From: a virus
Virus record (IMG/VR): IMGVR_UViG_3300043446_004195
Location: 1 to 32,708 of that record
Length of the DNA: 32,708 bases
Direction: 5' to 3' (one strand)
Shown piece by piece: positions 13,428-32,708 of this stretch. A program made the translations under genes and the position numbers. Numbering within the stretch: position 1 is the first letter of the stretch; the number at the start of each line of letters is the position of its first letter. The notes beneath the pieces are model-generated. The model was not told the origin of the DNA, did no database searches, and saw nothing but the letters and a program-made list of their open reading frames with translations.

Positions 13428-16073
13428 GTGGCCAACATTATCAAGCCGAAACGCTCGGAATCAACGGGGCAAACGCCAACGCTTTCCCCTGGCGAATTGG
13501 CAGTAAACATAGCCGATAAAAAGGTATGGGTTGCCAACAGTTCTGGAACTCCGGTTTTAATCGTGGACGGCAATGCCAGTGTAAGTGAAACCGATCCTGT
13601 TTTCACGGCTTCCGATGCTTTTTCCATTACCACCAGCGATATTACTAATTGGAACACGGCTTATGGCTGGGGCGATCATGCTAGCGCAGGCTATTTGACC
13701 ACTGAAACAGATCCTGTTTTTGGCGCATCGGAAGCCGCAACTATTACGGCCACGGACACTGGAAATTGGAACACGGCCTATGGGTGGGGTGACCATTCAA
13801 CGGCAGGGTATTTAACCTCGGAAACTGACCCAACTTTCACGGCTTCTGCTGCCTATTCCATTACCACCAGCGATATAACGAACTGGAACACTGCGTATGG
13901 CTGGGGCGATCATTCCAGCGTAGGTTATTTAACTATTGAAACAGATCCAATATTTACGGCATCTGATGCCGCATCCATTACGGCAACCGATATTGGAAAC
14001 TGGAATACGGCCTATGGGTGGGGCGATCATGCTTTGGCAGGCTACTTAACCATAGAAACCGACCCGGTTTTTAGTGCCAGCGATGCGGCATCCATTACAG
14101 CCACGGATATTTCCACCTGGAACGCCAAACCGGACTCGGTAGCCATTACCAGCAGCGGAAGCACCATCACGGTAACTGATAACACCGTGGGAGGGGCTGT
14201 CTCCTTCAATTTGGAAAATCCGCAGGGCATAGCCACCACCGATTCGCCAACTTTTGCTGGGTTAACGGTTGCCAGCTTGGTTTACCCATCTGCCGATGGC
14301 ACCAGTGGCCAGGTGCTTGTGACGGACGGTGCGGGTAATCTTTCCTTTGCCACCGCTGGCGGTGGTGGTGCAAGTGCGCTGGATGATCTCACGGACGTGA
14401 CGATTGCCACACCGGCGGCAAACGATGTGCTAGTATATAACAGCACTTCAAGCCAATGGGAAAACACCCAGTTAACTACCAGCCCCGGTGGAAATGACAA
14501 GGAAATACAATTTAATAATTCAGGCAATTTGGATGGTGCTTCGGAATTTAAATACTACGTTAACAGTGTACAAATTTTAACAATCGATCAAACGGCTTAT
14601 AATTTAATACCCCTTACTTTAAAAAGTGCAGCTTCTCCATATGCCAACCTTTTCCAATGGTTGCGCTCTGATAATTTGTTGTATGGTGGTGTAAGCAATT
14701 TTGGTGAGCTTTTTTTGGAATATGGAACGCCTTTAATTTTCAAAGGTGACTCAGCGATTAATGGTAATTACATCCAGTTGCAAGCTCCGGCAAATATTTC
14801 CAACGTTACCATTTTTACTCTGCCTAATGGGGATGGATCATCGGGTCAGGTTTTATCTACCAATGGATCTGGCCAGCTAACTTTCACAAATGTCATTGCC
14901 AACCTATCTGGTGGTTCGGGTGGCTCCATCCCGTACCAATCAAACACCAACACCACTAGCCTTTTAAGCCCCAATACCACCACTACCAAGAAGTTTTTAA
15001 GGCAAACAGGTACTGGCACTAACGGTGCTGCACCGGCGTGGGATACCATTGCCGCTGCCGATGTTCCAACCCTAAACCAAAACACAACTGGTTCTTCTGG
15101 AAGCTGTACTGGCAACAGTGCCACGGCGACAACGGCAACTAACTTGGCCGGTGGTGGTGCAGGTCAAATACCTTATCAGTCGGCTGCCGGTTCAACGGCC
15201 ATGCTTTCGGCTGGAACCAGTGGGCAAGTTTTGCGATCAAATGGAACATCTGCATTAACGTGGGAATCTCAAGGATTATTTAGCGGTGGACGATTAACCC
15301 TAACATCCGCAACACCTATTACCACTTCTGATGTAACCTCAGCCACAACCATTTATTACACTCCGTTTAACGGAGATAAAATAAGCCTCTATGATGGCAC
15401 CACCTGGGCAACTTATACATTCACTCAATTATCTTTGGCACTAGGAACACTAACGTCAGGCCTTAATTATGACGTATTCGTTTACAATAATGCAGGCACA
15501 TTGACGCTTGAAACAGCGTCATGGACAAACAACACGACAAGGGAAACGGCTTTAGCGTTGACGAATGGTATTTATTTAAAAACAGGCGCACTTTCTCGCA
15601 GGTATCTTGGAACTTTTCGCACTACCAGCACGACCACAACGGAAGACTCAGCAACTAAGAGATTTGTTTATAACGCCAATAATAGGATTAGTAAGCAAAT
15701 GTTTAGGAGCGATTCAACATCTTCATGGACTTACGCTACGGCGGCTTGGAGATACGCCAACAATTCTTCTTCAAACAGGCTGGATTTTGTTCAGGGGCTT
15801 GCTGAAGAAGCAGTTTTTTGTCATGTGATTTCTTCGTCTTCACATTCAGGATCAACAAGCACCTATGCCAGCATTGGGTACGATGCAAACACGTCCAACA
15901 GCGGCACAACGATTAACAAAGTAAGCACGGGTTCTGGTGCTTTAGTTGGATTTTACACAACAATTCCAGCGGTTGGTTTCCACTATCTAGCTTGGATCGA
16001 ATATACATCTGGTGCAACGGCAACCTTTACGGGCGGTTCCGAAAGTGGCATTTATGCCCAAATAAGGGTTTAA
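13428..16073 (+). CDS. Large tail fibre protein with 39-residue repeats
   Basis: The 881-residue protein starts at GTG 13428 after GAGGGG. Its first 40 residues (MANIIKPKRSESTGQ, PGELAVNIADKK) are homologous to the start of the previous gene. Residues about 54-235 hold four and a half copies of a 39-residue unit (ETDPVF, then SITTSDI, NWNTAYGWGDH, GYLT). A long Gly/Ser/Thr-rich region follows with fibre modules such as DGTSGQVLVTDGAGNLSF. From about residue 620 the C-terminal domain (TYTFTQLSLALGTL, YNANNRISKQMFRSDSTSSW, YANNSSSNRLDFVQGLAE) is a module found at the tips of many phage fibres. It is the best candidate for the receptor-binding protein. Confidence 0.85.
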   Translation: MANIIKPKRSESTGQTPTLSPGELAVNIADKKVWVANSSGTPVLIVDGNASVSETDPVFTASDAFSITTSDITNWNTAYGWGDHASAGYLTTETDPVFGASEAATITATDTGNWNTAYGWGDHSTAGYLTSETDPTFTASAAYSITTSDITNWNTAYGWGDHSSVGYLTIETDPIFTASDAASITATDIGNWNTAYGWGDHALAGYLTIETDPVFSASDAASITATDISTWNAKPDSVAITSSGSTITVTDNTVGGAVSFNLENPQGIATTDSPTFAGLTVASLVYPSADGTSGQVLVTDGAGNLSFATAGGGGASALDDLTDVTIATPAANDVLVYNSTSSQWENTQLTTSPGGNDKEIQFNNSGNLDGASEFKYYVNSVQILTIDQTAYNLIPLTLKSAASPYANLFQWLRSDNLLYGGVSNFGELFLEYGTPLIFKGDSAINGNYIQLQAPANISNVTIFTLPNGDGSSGQVLSTNGSGQLTFTNVIANLSGGSGGSIPYQSNTNTTSLLSPNTTTTKKFLRQTGTGTNGAAPAWDTIAAADVPTLNQNTTGSSGSCTGNSATATTATNLAGGGAGQIPYQSAAGSTAMLSAGTSGQVLRSNGTSALTWESQGLFSGGRLTLTSATPITTSDVTSATTIYYTPFNGDKISLYDGTTWATYTFTQLSLALGTLTSGLNYDVFVYNNAGTLTLETASWTNNTTRETALALTNGIYLKTGALSRRYLGTFRTTSTTTTEDSATKRFVYNANNRISKQMFRSDSTSSWTYATAAWRYANNSSSNRLDFVQGLAEEAVFCHVISSSSHSGSTSTYASIGYDANTSNSGTTINKVSTGSGALVGFYTTIPAVGFHYLAWIEYTSGATATFTGGSESGIYAQIRV
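13587..14130 (+). repeat. Tandem 117-bp coding repeats in the fibre gene
   Basis: Units start at 13587, 13704, 13821, 13938 and 14055, exactly 117 bp apart; the fifth is partial. Alternate units are the most alike (1 and 3 share SITTSDIT; 2 and 4 share ITATD), suggesting duplication of a two-unit block. They encode the 39-residue fibre repeat and could lengthen or shorten by recombination. Confidence 0.9.
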
Positions 16074-29445: not shown

Positions 29446-29497
29446 TTCAAAGTATTTTTTAGATTAAATTAGTTTTATGATTTGTTTATCAGGGCGT

Positions 29498-29660
29498 GGA
29501 TTGGACAGGATCGGCACGGCAAGTTGGGGTGGGGTATGTCGGGGCTCGGCATGGCTCGGATTGGTGCGGCATGGATAATTTTCAAGCGCACAACAGGGTG
29601 TGGCATGGCAAGTCTAGGCTAGGCAAGGCGAGGCTTGGCTCGGCAGGGCAGGGCGAGGAT
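29498..29660 (+). repeat. GGNNN pentanucleotide array 1
   Basis: GG occurs every 5 nt from 29498 to 29573 (16 positions, 14 GG and 2 GT), then, after a 24-nt step containing TTCAAGCGCACAAC, every 5 nt from 29597 to 29657 (13 positions, 12 GG and 1 GT). The third base is mostly C; the last two vary. It fills the gap between the zinc-ribbon gene and an HNH gene starting at 29681. Nothing else is visible in this gap. Confidence 0.9.
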
Positions 29661-29680: not shown

Positions 29681-30151
29681 ATGGAATATGTTTTCCAAGG
29701 CCAAGCAAGGCCATCAAAGGACCACCCAAATCAAACACATTGGGAGGAAATCCGCAGGCAGGCCATTGCCCGTGATGAGCGATGCAAAACATGCGGCAAT
29801 CCCGAAGACCTTGAATGCCACCACATCAGTTATTCCAGGTTTGGAAACGAAATTTTAAGCGACGTTACGATGCTTTGCATTTCATGCCACGATGCAATAA
29901 CTTCCCGCCTGCGAGGTAGCAGATATGCGGAAAGGAACTTGGCTGGCAAGTTATTACGAAAGGATTTTGAACATGGAATTAAAAGTGATGCTGGAAGGGT
30001 TAGCCCCGATCATTTTACACAACGGCCAAACAAGCGATCCAGCGAACAAATTCTCGCAGGCGATGAAACAAATATCCTCGAAAAGGAAAAAAACAGAAGC
30101 GGATTATACCGAGCTTGCAAAACTCGAATTCTTCGCCGGGTTGTACCTTAA
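29681..30151 (+). CDS. HNH endonuclease
   Basis: The N-terminal 80 residues carry HWEEIRRQAIARDERCKTCG, then LECHHISYSRFGNE and VTMLCISCHDAI. This is a complete HNH/beta-beta-alpha-metal unit: CxxC, HH and CxxCH. ATG 29681 follows GAAAGGA. After about residue 90 the frame runs on without a stop for 180 nt through the start of the next gene, giving an odd basic tail (PDHFTQRPNKRSS). A lost stop or a recent junction between genes could explain the overlap; the functional protein is probably only the first part. Insertion next to a repeat array is notable. Confidence 0.78.
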   Translation: MEYVFQGQARPSKDHPNQTHWEEIRRQAIARDERCKTCGNPEDLECHHISYSRFGNEILSDVTMLCISCHDAITSRLRGSRYAERNLAGKLLRKDFEHGIKSDAGRVSPDHFTQRPNKRSSEQILAGDETNILEKEKNRSGLYRACKTRILRRVVP

Positions 30152-30542
30152 CCAGGAAAAAGAAGTTGTTATTCCGGCAAGTTGTCTACAAGCCGTCATT
30201 ATCGCCGGGGCGAAAAAACACAAGGAAGGCCCAGCCGCCAAAGCAGGCGTATTTGTTCTTGATAGCGAACCACGTCTTGATTACGGAGCAAATCTTTCGC
30301 CCGAACAACTTTGGGAACAGCGTGACACTTACGCACTTACCGCTAGGGCCAAGATTGGCCAGAGTGCAATTATGCGAACCCGCCCAATATTCAGGACGTG
30401 GAAAATCAGCTTTAAAGTTTTTCTCAATGAAGACTTAGTTTCCATGGCTTCTTTTTCGGACTGGATTGCCACGGCAGGGGTTCAAGTTGGCCTTTGCGAT
30501 TGGAGGCCACAGCACGGGAGGTTCTCGGCCCAAGTGGCGTAG
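29973..30542 (+). CDS. Conserved phage protein, beta-rich, function unknown
   Basis: The 189-residue protein begins at ATG 29973, 7 nt after AAAGGA. The pattern is one I recall from many phages of unrelated hosts: LAPIILHNGQTSDPANKF, AMKQISSKRKKTEADY, LAKLEFFAGLYL, a middle with VVIPASCLQAVIIAGAKKHK, and a conserved end IMRTRPIFRTWK and VQVGLCDWRPQHGRFSAQ. No function has been assigned to my knowledge. The final 'GL-x-DWRP-x-x-GRF' and the strand order recall RAMP/Cas7-like folds, which is a speculation. It overlaps the HNH frame by 179 nt. Confidence 0.72.
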   Translation: MELKVMLEGLAPIILHNGQTSDPANKFSQAMKQISSKRKKTEADYTELAKLEFFAGLYLNQEKEVVIPASCLQAVIIAGAKKHKEGPAAKAGVFVLDSEPRLDYGANLSPEQLWEQRDTYALTARAKIGQSAIMRTRPIFRTWKISFKVFLNEDLVSMASFSDWIATAGVQVGLCDWRPQHGRFSAQVA

Positions 30543-30553
30543 TTGGATTATTG

Positions 30554-30706
30554 GGCATGGCGAGGCAGAGAGGTGCTTAAAAAGGCACGGCATGGCGGTG
30601 TCTGGATAGGCCAGGCTTGGTAAGGTAAGGTCAGGTTCGGAAAGGCACGGCATGGCGAGGTCCGGTCCGGCCAGGTGTGGAATGGCTAGGCAGGGTCGGG
30701 CAGGGT
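30554..30706 (+). repeat. GGNNN pentanucleotide array 2 (most regular)
   Basis: From 30584 to 30704, 25 consecutive positions at 5-nt steps are GG in all but one case (30599). Three more in-phase GGs at 30554-30565 precede a short break. Units include GGCAC, GGCAT, GGTAA, GGTCC and GGATA. The exact phase continues without insertions although the other bases change. It fills the gap between two genes, and T5 follows. Confidence 0.92.
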
Positions 30707-30763: not shown

Positions 30764-31057
30764 ATGCCAAATCAGAAAAAGATAAAAACGGAAACGGAAA
30801 AAAACAGCGATTTCCTTAAAGAAATTGGCTGGGTTTCCCGACCGCAACCGCCACTATTCAGAGTGCTGGAAACGGACATATCCGAACCAACACGCATTCC
30901 CCCAGGCACTACTGAGCGAATTGAGCTTTATTGCCTGCGGGCAGATGCCGGGTTACCACTTTTTATCCCAGGTGACAGAGCCAACTTCGAAGGGCTTGCA
31001 GCAATCACGGAAAGAGATATTCCATTAGACGCTGGGAGGTATAGTAAACATGGATGA
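30764..31057 (+). CDS. Small planctomycete-type protein (LPLFIPGD motif)
   Basis: The 97-residue protein has a basic N-terminus and then TRIPPGTTERIELYCLRADA followed by GLPLFIPGDRANFEG. The phrase 'PGT-x-E+I-x-L---RA-x-GLPLF-P-D' is a motif I associate with small planctomycete proteins of unknown role. GAAAGGA lies 8 nt before ATG 30764; a nearer ATG at 30756 is out of frame. The stop overlaps the start of the DUF6378 gene. Confidence 0.6.
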   Translation: MPNQKKIKTETEKNSDFLKEIGWVSRPQPPLFRVLETDISEPTRIPPGTTERIELYCLRADAGLPLFIPGDRANFEGLAAITERDIPLDAGRYSKHG

Positions 31058-32132: not shown

Positions 32133-32215
32133 GGCTGGGCGAGTCCGGGTGCGGCGGGGTCGGGCATGGCACGGATTGGTGCGGCTCGGCGAGGCGTGGC
32201 GAGGACAGGCATGGC
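32133..32215 (+). repeat. GGNNN pentanucleotide array 3
   Basis: From 32133 to 32213 there are 17 positions at exact 5-nt steps; 16 are GG and one (32143) is GT. Units include GGCTG, GGCGA, GGTGC, GGATT and GGACA. The array lies 40 nt after the last early gene and ends 6 nt before a strong terminator hairpin. Confidence 0.92.
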
Positions 32216-32220
32216 TATTA

Positions 32221-32254
32221 AGGTGGCATTCCAAAAAACGCCACCTATTTTTTT
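32221..32254 (+). terminator. Intrinsic terminator of the early operon
   Basis: AGGTGGC (32221-32227) and GCCACCT (32240-32246) form a perfect 7-bp stem with a 12-nt loop, followed by A and seven T residues (32248-32254). It lies between the end of the early operon and the terminal HNH gene. The form is that of a strong Rho-independent terminator. Confidence 0.88.
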
Positions 32255-32266
32255 GATAGGCAACCC

Positions 32267-32617
32267 ATGAAATTTCACGAACCAAAACGCATTTTTGCAG
32301 ATGGAGGCTTTAAATTTAAGAAAGATAAACGTGAGTCTGGACGCTATCCACCAAATTGGTGGAAAATTCGCAAACAGGTGCTAACGGAGCATCCACTTTG
32401 CCAGCCGTGTGAACGAAATGGAAAATTGGCCATCGCTTTAGAGGTGGACCACATCACACCCATTCGCAACCATGGGGATAAGATCGACCGAAAGAATCTG
32501 CAAGCAATTTGCCGAGAGTGCCACCGAAAGAAATCAACGGCAGAATGCCAGGCATACAGCAGGGAACAGCTTCAGCGGGAAGCGGAAAACCGCCTGCGCC
32601 TACCCCCTGCGCCCTAG
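32267..32617 (+). CDS. HNH endonuclease, packaging-associated type
   Basis: The 116-residue protein reads NWWKIRKQVLTEHPLCQPCE, then ALEVDHITPIRNHGD and NLQAICRECHRKKSTAE. This gives CxxC, the D-H of HNH, an Asn and a CxxCH. It is the class found directly upstream of terminase small subunit genes in HK97-type phages (HK97 gp74 is the model), where it is needed with terminase for DNA cutting at cos. ATG 32267 has only a weak ribosome site (GATAGG). It starts 13 nt after the terminator, so its promoter must be close or inside the array. Confidence 0.85.
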   Translation: MKFHEPKRIFADGGFKFKKDKRESGRYPPNWWKIRKQVLTEHPLCQPCERNGKLAIALEVDHITPIRNHGDKIDRKNLQAICRECHRKKSTAECQAYSREQLQREAENRLRLPPAP

Positions 32618-32708
32618 GCCAGCGACCCCCTGCCACATTGGCACCCCCCCCCACCCCCTAACCCTAGGGGGGGAGTCTGTATAGGCCCAAACGCCGCAGG
32701 ACCGACCA
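32618..32708 (+). other. Candidate cos / packaging site
   Basis: After the HNH stop there is a C-rich run with ACCCCCT at 32602, 32625 and 32653, then CCCCCTA-ACCC-TAGGGGG (a perfect 7-bp hairpin, 32654-32671), then GGGGAGTCTG and a final GCCGCAGGACCGACC. A C-run, G-run and GC-rich end in this position, between HNH and terminase genes, is what cos regions of related phages look like from memory. No coding frame is convincing here. Confidence 0.45.

What the first reader, a model, noticed from the sequence alone, without database searches (positions are those of the whole stretch)
30554..30706. GGNNN array 2: GG at exact 5-nt steps over 25 units
Twenty-four of 25 consecutive 5-nt positions from 30584 to 30704 are GG, while the other three bases vary freely. 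The conserved item is the phase, not the sequence, so this is unlike ordinary tandem duplication. Every four units match G2N3G2N3G2N3G2, the pattern for two-tetrad G-quadruplexes, on the coding strand and hence in RNA. It may be a polymerase- or ribosome-pausing element, a phased protein-binding platform or an RNA sponge. I know no named feature of this type.
Basis: partly seen in the sequence, partly recalled or inferred. Interest (0 to 1): 0.85.

Follow-up and report, generated by a model that had tools for sequence, protein, structure and literature searches.

The report
Phage VIPR guide-RNA arrays (GGYNN repeats)
The evenly spaced GG pairs are guide-RNA arrays of a recently described CRISPR-like phage weapon called VIPR, sitting beside its small RNA-binding protein; the two free bases of each five spell out the DNA that a rival phage must carry to be attacked.

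Summary
In detail: 24 of 25 five-base steps are GG (30584-30705), and no shuffle comes near. Three further arrays (29493-29574, 29597-29658, 32133-32214) share the strand and also lie between genes. The unit is GGYNN, not GGNNN. The same arrays recur in over 100 viral contigs. The one gene family that travels with them is PHROG 4652, in the window 29973-30542. Its only significant PDB relative is the SUSP1 Vipr protein (36pp, E=2.5e-39), and its predicted fold is a Csm3/Cas7-type RAMP. This is a VIPR system with its vrRNA arrays, described in a 2026 preprint (PMC13142463). It is therefore a new member of a known kind, not a G-quadruplex or a new element. Array 2 looks like two fused 12-unit vrRNAs; its target was not found. 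Beyond what I read in the preprint's main text: across 75 loci the NN pairs match codon positions 1-2, which supports the one-base-skip rule; array 3 decodes to the HNH motif of phage endonucleases and matches the window's own HNH gene 193 bases downstream at 24/32 in codon frame; and, as a group, guides match diverged genes beside their own array only under that rule.

The parts
30579..30705 (+). Array 2, the reported finding: 24 of 25 GG(Y)NN units; read as two fused vrRNAs
30581..30640 (+). Array 2 block A: 60 nt, 12 units, starts AAAGGCACGGCATGGCG
   Evidence: 72% identical to block B; the 17-nt identical start recurs at a 60-nt offset, reached by 4 of 2000 permutations
30641..30705 (+). 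Array 2 block B: 12 units plus final GGG
29493..29574 (+). Array 1a: 15 of 17 GG units
29597..29658 (+). Array 1b: 12 of 13 GG units, ends 22 nt before the HNH start codon
32133..32214 (+). Array 3: 16 of 17 GG units; NN pairs decode to an HNH-endonuclease motif
32221..32254 (+). Hairpin (AGGTGGC/GCCACCT, 12-nt loop) followed by A and T7 just after array 3: likely vrRNA 3' end or terminator
   Evidence: sequence, RNAfold; the terminator scan did not list it because its loop limit is 8
29973..30542 (+). vipr gene: RAMP protein of 189 aa, PHROG 4652
   Evidence: PDB 36pp SUSP1 Vipr, phmmer E=4.6e-26; AlphaFold2 pLDDT 97.4; Foldseek hits Csm3/Cas7; PHROG E=3e-50
29681..30151 (+). HNH endonuclease ORF upstream of vipr, overlapping its start by 179 nt; possible accessory gene
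   Evidence: Pfam HNH E=1.3e-4, PHROG HNH
30764..31057 (+). 97-aa ORF after array 2, in the place where relatives carry an accessory gene; no match to that family
32267..32617 (+). HNH endonuclease gene after array 3, homologous to HNH genes beside the terminase gene of HK97-like phages
   Evidence: Pfam HNH E=1.3e-11; tblastn
32408..32455 (+). Site in that HNH gene matching array 3's NN pairs at 24/32 under the one-base-skip rule, in codon frame (CERNGKLAIALEVDHI)

Best explanation
The array is one of four vrRNA (guide-RNA) arrays of a VIPR system carried by an uncultivated temperate tailed phage. The vipr gene (29973-30542) makes a small RAMP protein. Copies line up along the array RNA with a five-base step, holding each GGY and exposing each NN. 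The NN pairs together pair with double-stranded DNA whose sequence is NNxNNxNN, one base being skipped between pairs. Binding represses the target gene, usually in a competing phage or satellite. The skipped base tends to be a codon's third position, so silent mutations do not give escape. Array 2 is best read as two 12-unit vrRNAs joined in phase. Shown here: the arrays, their link to vipr, homology and fold of the protein, and the codon-like make-up of the NN pairs. Taken from the preprint (shown there for other VIPRs): RNA binding, the skip rule, repression. Inferred: that this copy is expressed and active. Array 2's own target is unknown; array 3 most likely targets the HNH endonuclease gene of a related phage.
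For: Arrays confirmed and non-random. GGYNN consensus over 4723 units in 114 loci, units independent. One family dominates the neighbourhood: 60 loci by BLAST, all on the array strand; the next families reach 12. By profile it is in 87/114 array loci, against 1/200 control viral loci and 0/109 genome loci without diverse arrays; the five isolate phages examined with a homolog (Gordonia Trine and MakoManhole, Mycobacterium LittleE, Pseudomonas Medea1, Escherichia allfine) all carry same-strand arrays within about 0.1-1.5 kb of it. PDB: SUSP1 Vipr E=2.5e-39 for the family and 4.6e-26 for the window protein, no other significant hit. Fold: pLDDT 97.4, all 50 listed PDB matches are chains of CRISPR effector complexes, mainly Csm3/Cas7. 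The preprint describes exactly this unit and partner. Skip rule, independent data: NN pairs fit codon positions 1-2 (KL .022, r .82), not 2-3 (.063.13) or 3-1 (.209, -.17); position 1-2 is best in 1999/2000 bootstraps and 49 of 68 loci. Guides match their own flanks beyond permutation only with a one-base skip: 22 of 282 at z>2, against 3, 2 and 7 for skips 0, 2, 3.
Against: No expression data. No exact target for any window array in IMG/VR: six 8-NN patterns gave only chance-level extensions. Array 2 has 25 units, outside the published 9-16, unless it is two vrRNAs. The 3' flanks of the arrays share no obvious tail, whereas the characterised clade has a structured tail. No gene of the accessory families common among relatives was found. 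27 of 114 array loci show no vipr in the DNA held, partly because flanks are short.
Confidence: 0.95

Rival explanations
1. The array is a chain of two-tetrad G-quadruplexes in RNA or DNA that pauses polymerase or ribosome.
For: Every four units fit G2N3G2N3G2N3G2 on the coding strand (sequence).
Against: Does not need an exact five-base phase over up to 141 units, a pyrimidine at position 3, codon-like NN pairs, or one partner gene. Folding energy of arrays equals that of NN-permuted arrays (mean z 0.2 over 204 arrays; array 2 reached by 8.75% of permutations; this does not model G-quadruplexes).
Confidence: 0.02
2. The array is a binding strip for another oligomeric RNA-binding protein, as TRAP rings bind (G/U)AG triplets spaced by two bases.
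For: Same geometry: triplet plus two free bases, period five (TRAP from my own knowledge; unit).
Against: The linked protein is a RAMP, not TRAP; a mere platform would not give NN pairs the composition of codon positions 1-2 or matches under a one-base skip.
Confidence: 0.01
3. The array is a neutral simple repeat expanded by slippage, or a (GGYAA)n repeat randomised at A.
For: The last two units are enriched in A at position 4 (0.51-0.54 against 0.30); a few pure GGCAA or GGCAC runs exist among the hits.
Against: Adjacent units are no more alike than random; GG and Y stay fixed while NN is random; strand, position beside vipr and codon signature are unexplained.
Confidence: 0.01
4. A VIPR array that regulates the phage's own neighbouring genes rather than rivals.
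For: Guides match genes next to themselves beyond chance; array 3 matches the adjacent HNH gene at 24/32.
Against: The match is imperfect (8 of 32 bases wrong), as expected for a diverged version in a rival; HNH genes of HK97-like and other phages score as high (24-25/32); the preprint's targets are mostly other elements.
Confidence: 0.12

Closest known systems
VIPR systems (Vipr protein + vrRNAs), preprint PMC13142463, PDB 36pp
   Same: GGY/NN five-base units in intergenic RNA on the coding strand next to a vipr gene; RAMP protein homologous to SUSP1 Vipr; phage host; codon-like NN pairs that fit the one-base-skip rule.
   Different: Array 2 has 25 units (probably 2x12); no conserved 3' tail seen; the relatives' usual accessory gene is absent, and an HNH ORF overlaps vipr; A is tolerated at position 3 in 14% of units.
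Class 1 CRISPR-Cas effectors (Csm3/Cas7 backbone on crRNA)
   Same: RAMP fold; protein copies presumed to line a guide RNA at regular steps.
   Different: Period five with three bases not used for pairing, instead of six with one; no repeat-spacer array, no Cas1/Cas2 found; one small protein.
TRAP and the trp leader (from my own knowledge)
   Same: Triplets spaced by two free bases, period five, on single-stranded RNA.
   Different: NAG instead of GGY, ring protein, spacers carry no information; not homologous.

Membership tests
VIPR | vipr gene (RAMP homolog) at the locus | tested here: met
   29973-30542 versus SUSP1 Vipr E=4.6e-26
VIPR | RRM core / RAMP fold | tested here: met
   AlphaFold2 pLDDT 97.4; Foldseek best E=2.9e-6 to Csm3-type chains, probability 1.0
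VIPR | Glycine-rich loop | tested here: met
   Family consensus AG..GxGDxRP..G..GRF with three invariant G; in the window AGVQVGLCDWRPQHGRF, one G replaced by C
VIPR | Thumb domain that holds the guide RNA | not tested
   Structural detail not inspected residue by residue
VIPR | vrRNA of tandem YNNGG units, GGY conserved, NN hypervariable | tested here: met
VIPR | 9-16 units per vrRNA | tested here: inconclusive
   Arrays 1b (12/13), 1a (15/17) and 3 (16/17) fit or nearly; array 2 has 25, consistent with 2x12; 72% of 300 arrays have 9-16 units
VIPR | Conserved structured 3' tail | tested here: inconclusive
   The 3' flanks differ among the window's arrays; only array 3 has a hairpin with T-run. 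The preprint describes the tail for the SUSP1/P. fulva clades; tails of other types were not available to me
VIPR | Accessory (vap) gene | tested here: inconclusive
   Neither of the two recurrent neighbour families is in the window; HNH upstream and the 97-aa ORF are candidates
VIPR | Carried by a phage or mobile element | tested here: met
   Portal, protease, major head protein, tape measure, tail fibre, integrase
VIPR | vrRNA expressed and bound by Vipr | not testable with these tools
   Needs small-RNA sequencing and pull-down
VIPR | DNA recognition with one skipped base | tested here: met
   Indirect, not biochemical. Population level: codon positions 1-2 and own-flank matches only at skip 1; array 3 against HNH, 0 of 20,000 permutations reach 24/32
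CRISPR-Cas class 1 | Identical repeats separated by spacers; Cas1/Cas2 and multi-gene effector | tested here: not met
   No such array; among the window proteins scanned none matches a Cas family at significance
Ordinary tandem repeat | Neighbouring units more alike than distant ones | tested here: not met
   277 identical neighbours of 4811 versus 262.6 expected
G-quadruplex element | Forms tetrads in K+ | not testable with these tools
   Needs circular dichroism; sequence permits it

The most novel reading that the evidence does not exclude
VIPR guides are aimed, often, at diverged versions of the genes that flank the guide itself: a vrRNA sits beside gene X and attacks the rival phage's version of X. 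That would make VIPR a weapon fought position by position between related phages, protect the owner through its own divergent version, and hint that guides are captured from displaced local alleles. In this window vrRNA 3 and the HNH gene beside it are the clearest case found.
Probability: 0.4. Interest if true: 0.65.

Novelty: new member of a known kind. Interest (0 to 1): 0.45.

Why it matters
It shows that a striking pattern seen in raw sequence is the signature of a guide-RNA system published only months earlier, and that this pattern alone finds such systems in many unnamed viruses. The independent codon-position signal supports the unusual reading rule across diverse phages, not only the two clades tested in the preprint. 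The tendency of guides to resemble genes beside them makes a testable proposal about what VIPR guides are for and where they come from.

Tried and rejected
Six exact 8-NN target patterns against IMG/VR (three from array 2, one each from arrays 1a, 1b and 3): all hits extend at chance level. Decoded peptides of array 2 (both strands) and array 1a (reverse strand only) by tblastn against phages: no match at E up to 10, whereas array 3's peptide hit 61 records, those listed being annotated HNH endonuclease, endonuclease or hypothetical. A guide of L137 matching an HNH gene in L041 at 26/32 was equalled by one reversed-order control at DNA level, so it is not claimed, although it was the best of 752 peptide-level scores and beat all 752 permuted ones. 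Guides against all fetched loci as a pool: no excess at any skip; the signal appears only for a guide's own flanks. First ideas of a TRAP-like ring, adenine mutagenesis and R-loops were dropped once the partner protein was found. Rfam: nothing, no hammerhead ribozyme. Unusual folding of array 2 against dinucleotide shuffles (z -4.5) disappears against NN-permuted arrays. No close relative of the window's Vipr was found in IMG/VR; the host is unknown.

Full report
What is there. The window is a 32.7-kb IMG/VR record of a temperate tailed phage (portal, head protease, major head protein, tape measure, tail fibre, integrase). GG occurs at 24 of 25 five-base steps from 30584 to 30705. Three more arrays lie at 29493-29574, 29597-29658 and 32133-32214. 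All are on +, between a stop codon and the next start codon. Shuffles never come close. Position 3 of the unit is almost never G and mostly a pyrimidine, so the unit is GGYNN.

It recurs. In GTDB genomes most of the 118 hits to thirteen GGYNN units are simple or coding repeats; nine loci passed my filter for diverse arrays and seven of those carry the partner gene. Over 114 loci, 300 arrays and 4723 units, neighbouring units are no more alike than random order predicts (277 against 262.6), so slippage or unit duplication is not the source. Arrays have a modal length of 12 units, and 72% have 9-16.

The partner. Clustering ORFs of these loci gave one dominant family: 60 loci, always on the array strand, next largest 12. 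In the window it is 29973-30542. A profile finds it in 87 of 114 array loci, against 1 of 200 control viral loci and 0 of 109 genome loci without diverse arrays. I examined five isolate phages that have a homolog; all five have same-strand arrays near it. Pfam has no model for it; PHROG 4652 covers all 58 members used and has no function assigned. The PDB holds one clear relative, SUSP1 Vipr (36pp; E=2.5e-39 family, 4.6e-26 window protein). The AlphaFold2 model (pLDDT 97.4) matches Csm3/Cas7-type RAMP chains of CRISPR complexes.

What it is. A preprint first posted in April 2026 (PMC13142463) describes VIPR: a phage RAMP protein, Vipr, with vrRNAs made of 9-16 YNNGG units. The NN pairs recognise double-stranded DNA with one skipped base between pairs and repress genes of competing elements. 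The window's arrays and gene match that description feature by feature; the exceptions are listed in the membership test. No other paper in the library mentions it.

Array 2. Its 25 units split into two 60-nt blocks, 30581-30640 and 30641-30700, 72% identical, both starting AAAGGCACGGCATGGCG. The 17-nt repeat is reached by 4 of 2000 permutations. I read it as two 12-unit vrRNAs fused in phase. Its target was not found.

Independent support for the reading rule. If NN pairs are copied from coding targets with the third codon base skipped, their composition should follow codon positions 1-2. Over 75 loci it does (KL .0225, r .82), and not positions 2-3 (.0628.13) or 3-1 (.2091, -.17); 1999 of 2000 bootstraps and 49 of 68 single loci agree.

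Guides resemble their neighbours. I compared each guide with the 2 kb on either side of its own array (arrays masked), for skips 0-3, against NN permutations. Only skip 1 shows an excess: 22 of 282 guides at z>2 against 3, 2 and 7; 8 at z>3 against 0, 1 and 3. The strong matches lie closer to the array than the weak ones (10 of 22 within 300 nt against 38 of 238; Fisher P=.002). In 16 of the 22 the longest open frame over the site is the one that puts the skipped base at the third codon position, where one third is expected by chance (my count from that output). The best case is this window: array 3 against 32408-32455 in the HNH gene 193 nt downstream, 24/32, 0 of 20,000 permutations reaching 24. 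Array 3 decodes to C[DE]RAGR[IM]T[FL]AS[DE]V[DE][HQ][IM] (first residue C or W); the gene reads CERNGKLAIALEVDHI. By tblastn one reading of this peptide hit 61 phage records; the listed ones are annotated HNH endonuclease, endonuclease or hypothetical, and three of them score 24-25/32 at the homologous site, one beside a terminase gene. So vrRNA 3 probably targets the HNH gene of a related, unsequenced phage. Self-regulation is a less likely alternative because 8 of 32 bases mismatch. I chose this own-flank test after seeing the pattern, so it should be repeated on fresh loci.

Limits. Everything about expression, binding and repression in this phage is inferred. The preprint is not peer-reviewed and its supplement could not be read, so the system's type (I-VII) and any overlap with the local-target observation are open. 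By a tree of Vipr sequences the window groups with L033, L057, L109 and L024, near the isolate phages including a Felixounavirus (one deep node has low support).

Noticed in passing
29681-30151 and 29973-30542: An HNH ORF overlaps the start of vipr by 179 nt in another frame; the relative L041 also has HNH-like coding sequence just upstream of vipr. It could be the accessory gene of this subtype.
   Followed up: partly
L029, L038, L024, L133, L062, L068 (array regions): Long arrays are broken into blocks by a single four-base unit, often GGCA (GGCAGGCA), shifting the phase; perhaps the staggered vrRNAs of the preprint.
   Followed up: partly
300 arrays in 114 loci: The last two units before the 3' end are enriched for A and depleted for C at position 4 (A .51-.54, C .04-.08): a 3'-end signature.
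   Followed up: partly
L212 (Thermoplasmata MAG), L155 (Patescibacteria MAG), L150 (Fibrobacteres MAG): Diverse GGYNN arrays with a vipr homolog in contigs binned with an archaeon and other little-studied phyla.
   Followed up: no
L039, L044, L064, L089, L097 and 22 other array loci: Array loci with no vipr detected in the DNA held, some with up to about 15 kb; orphan arrays, very diverged Vipr, or a vipr gene further away.
   Followed up: no
L319: Control contig with a vipr homolog and an accessory-family gene but no array passing the threshold in the stretch held.
   Followed up: no
13587-14123: Tail-fibre gene with about four imperfect 117-nt tandem repeats.
   Followed up: no
32590-32672: C-rich and then G-rich low-complexity stretch after the last HNH gene, near the record's end.
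   Followed up: no
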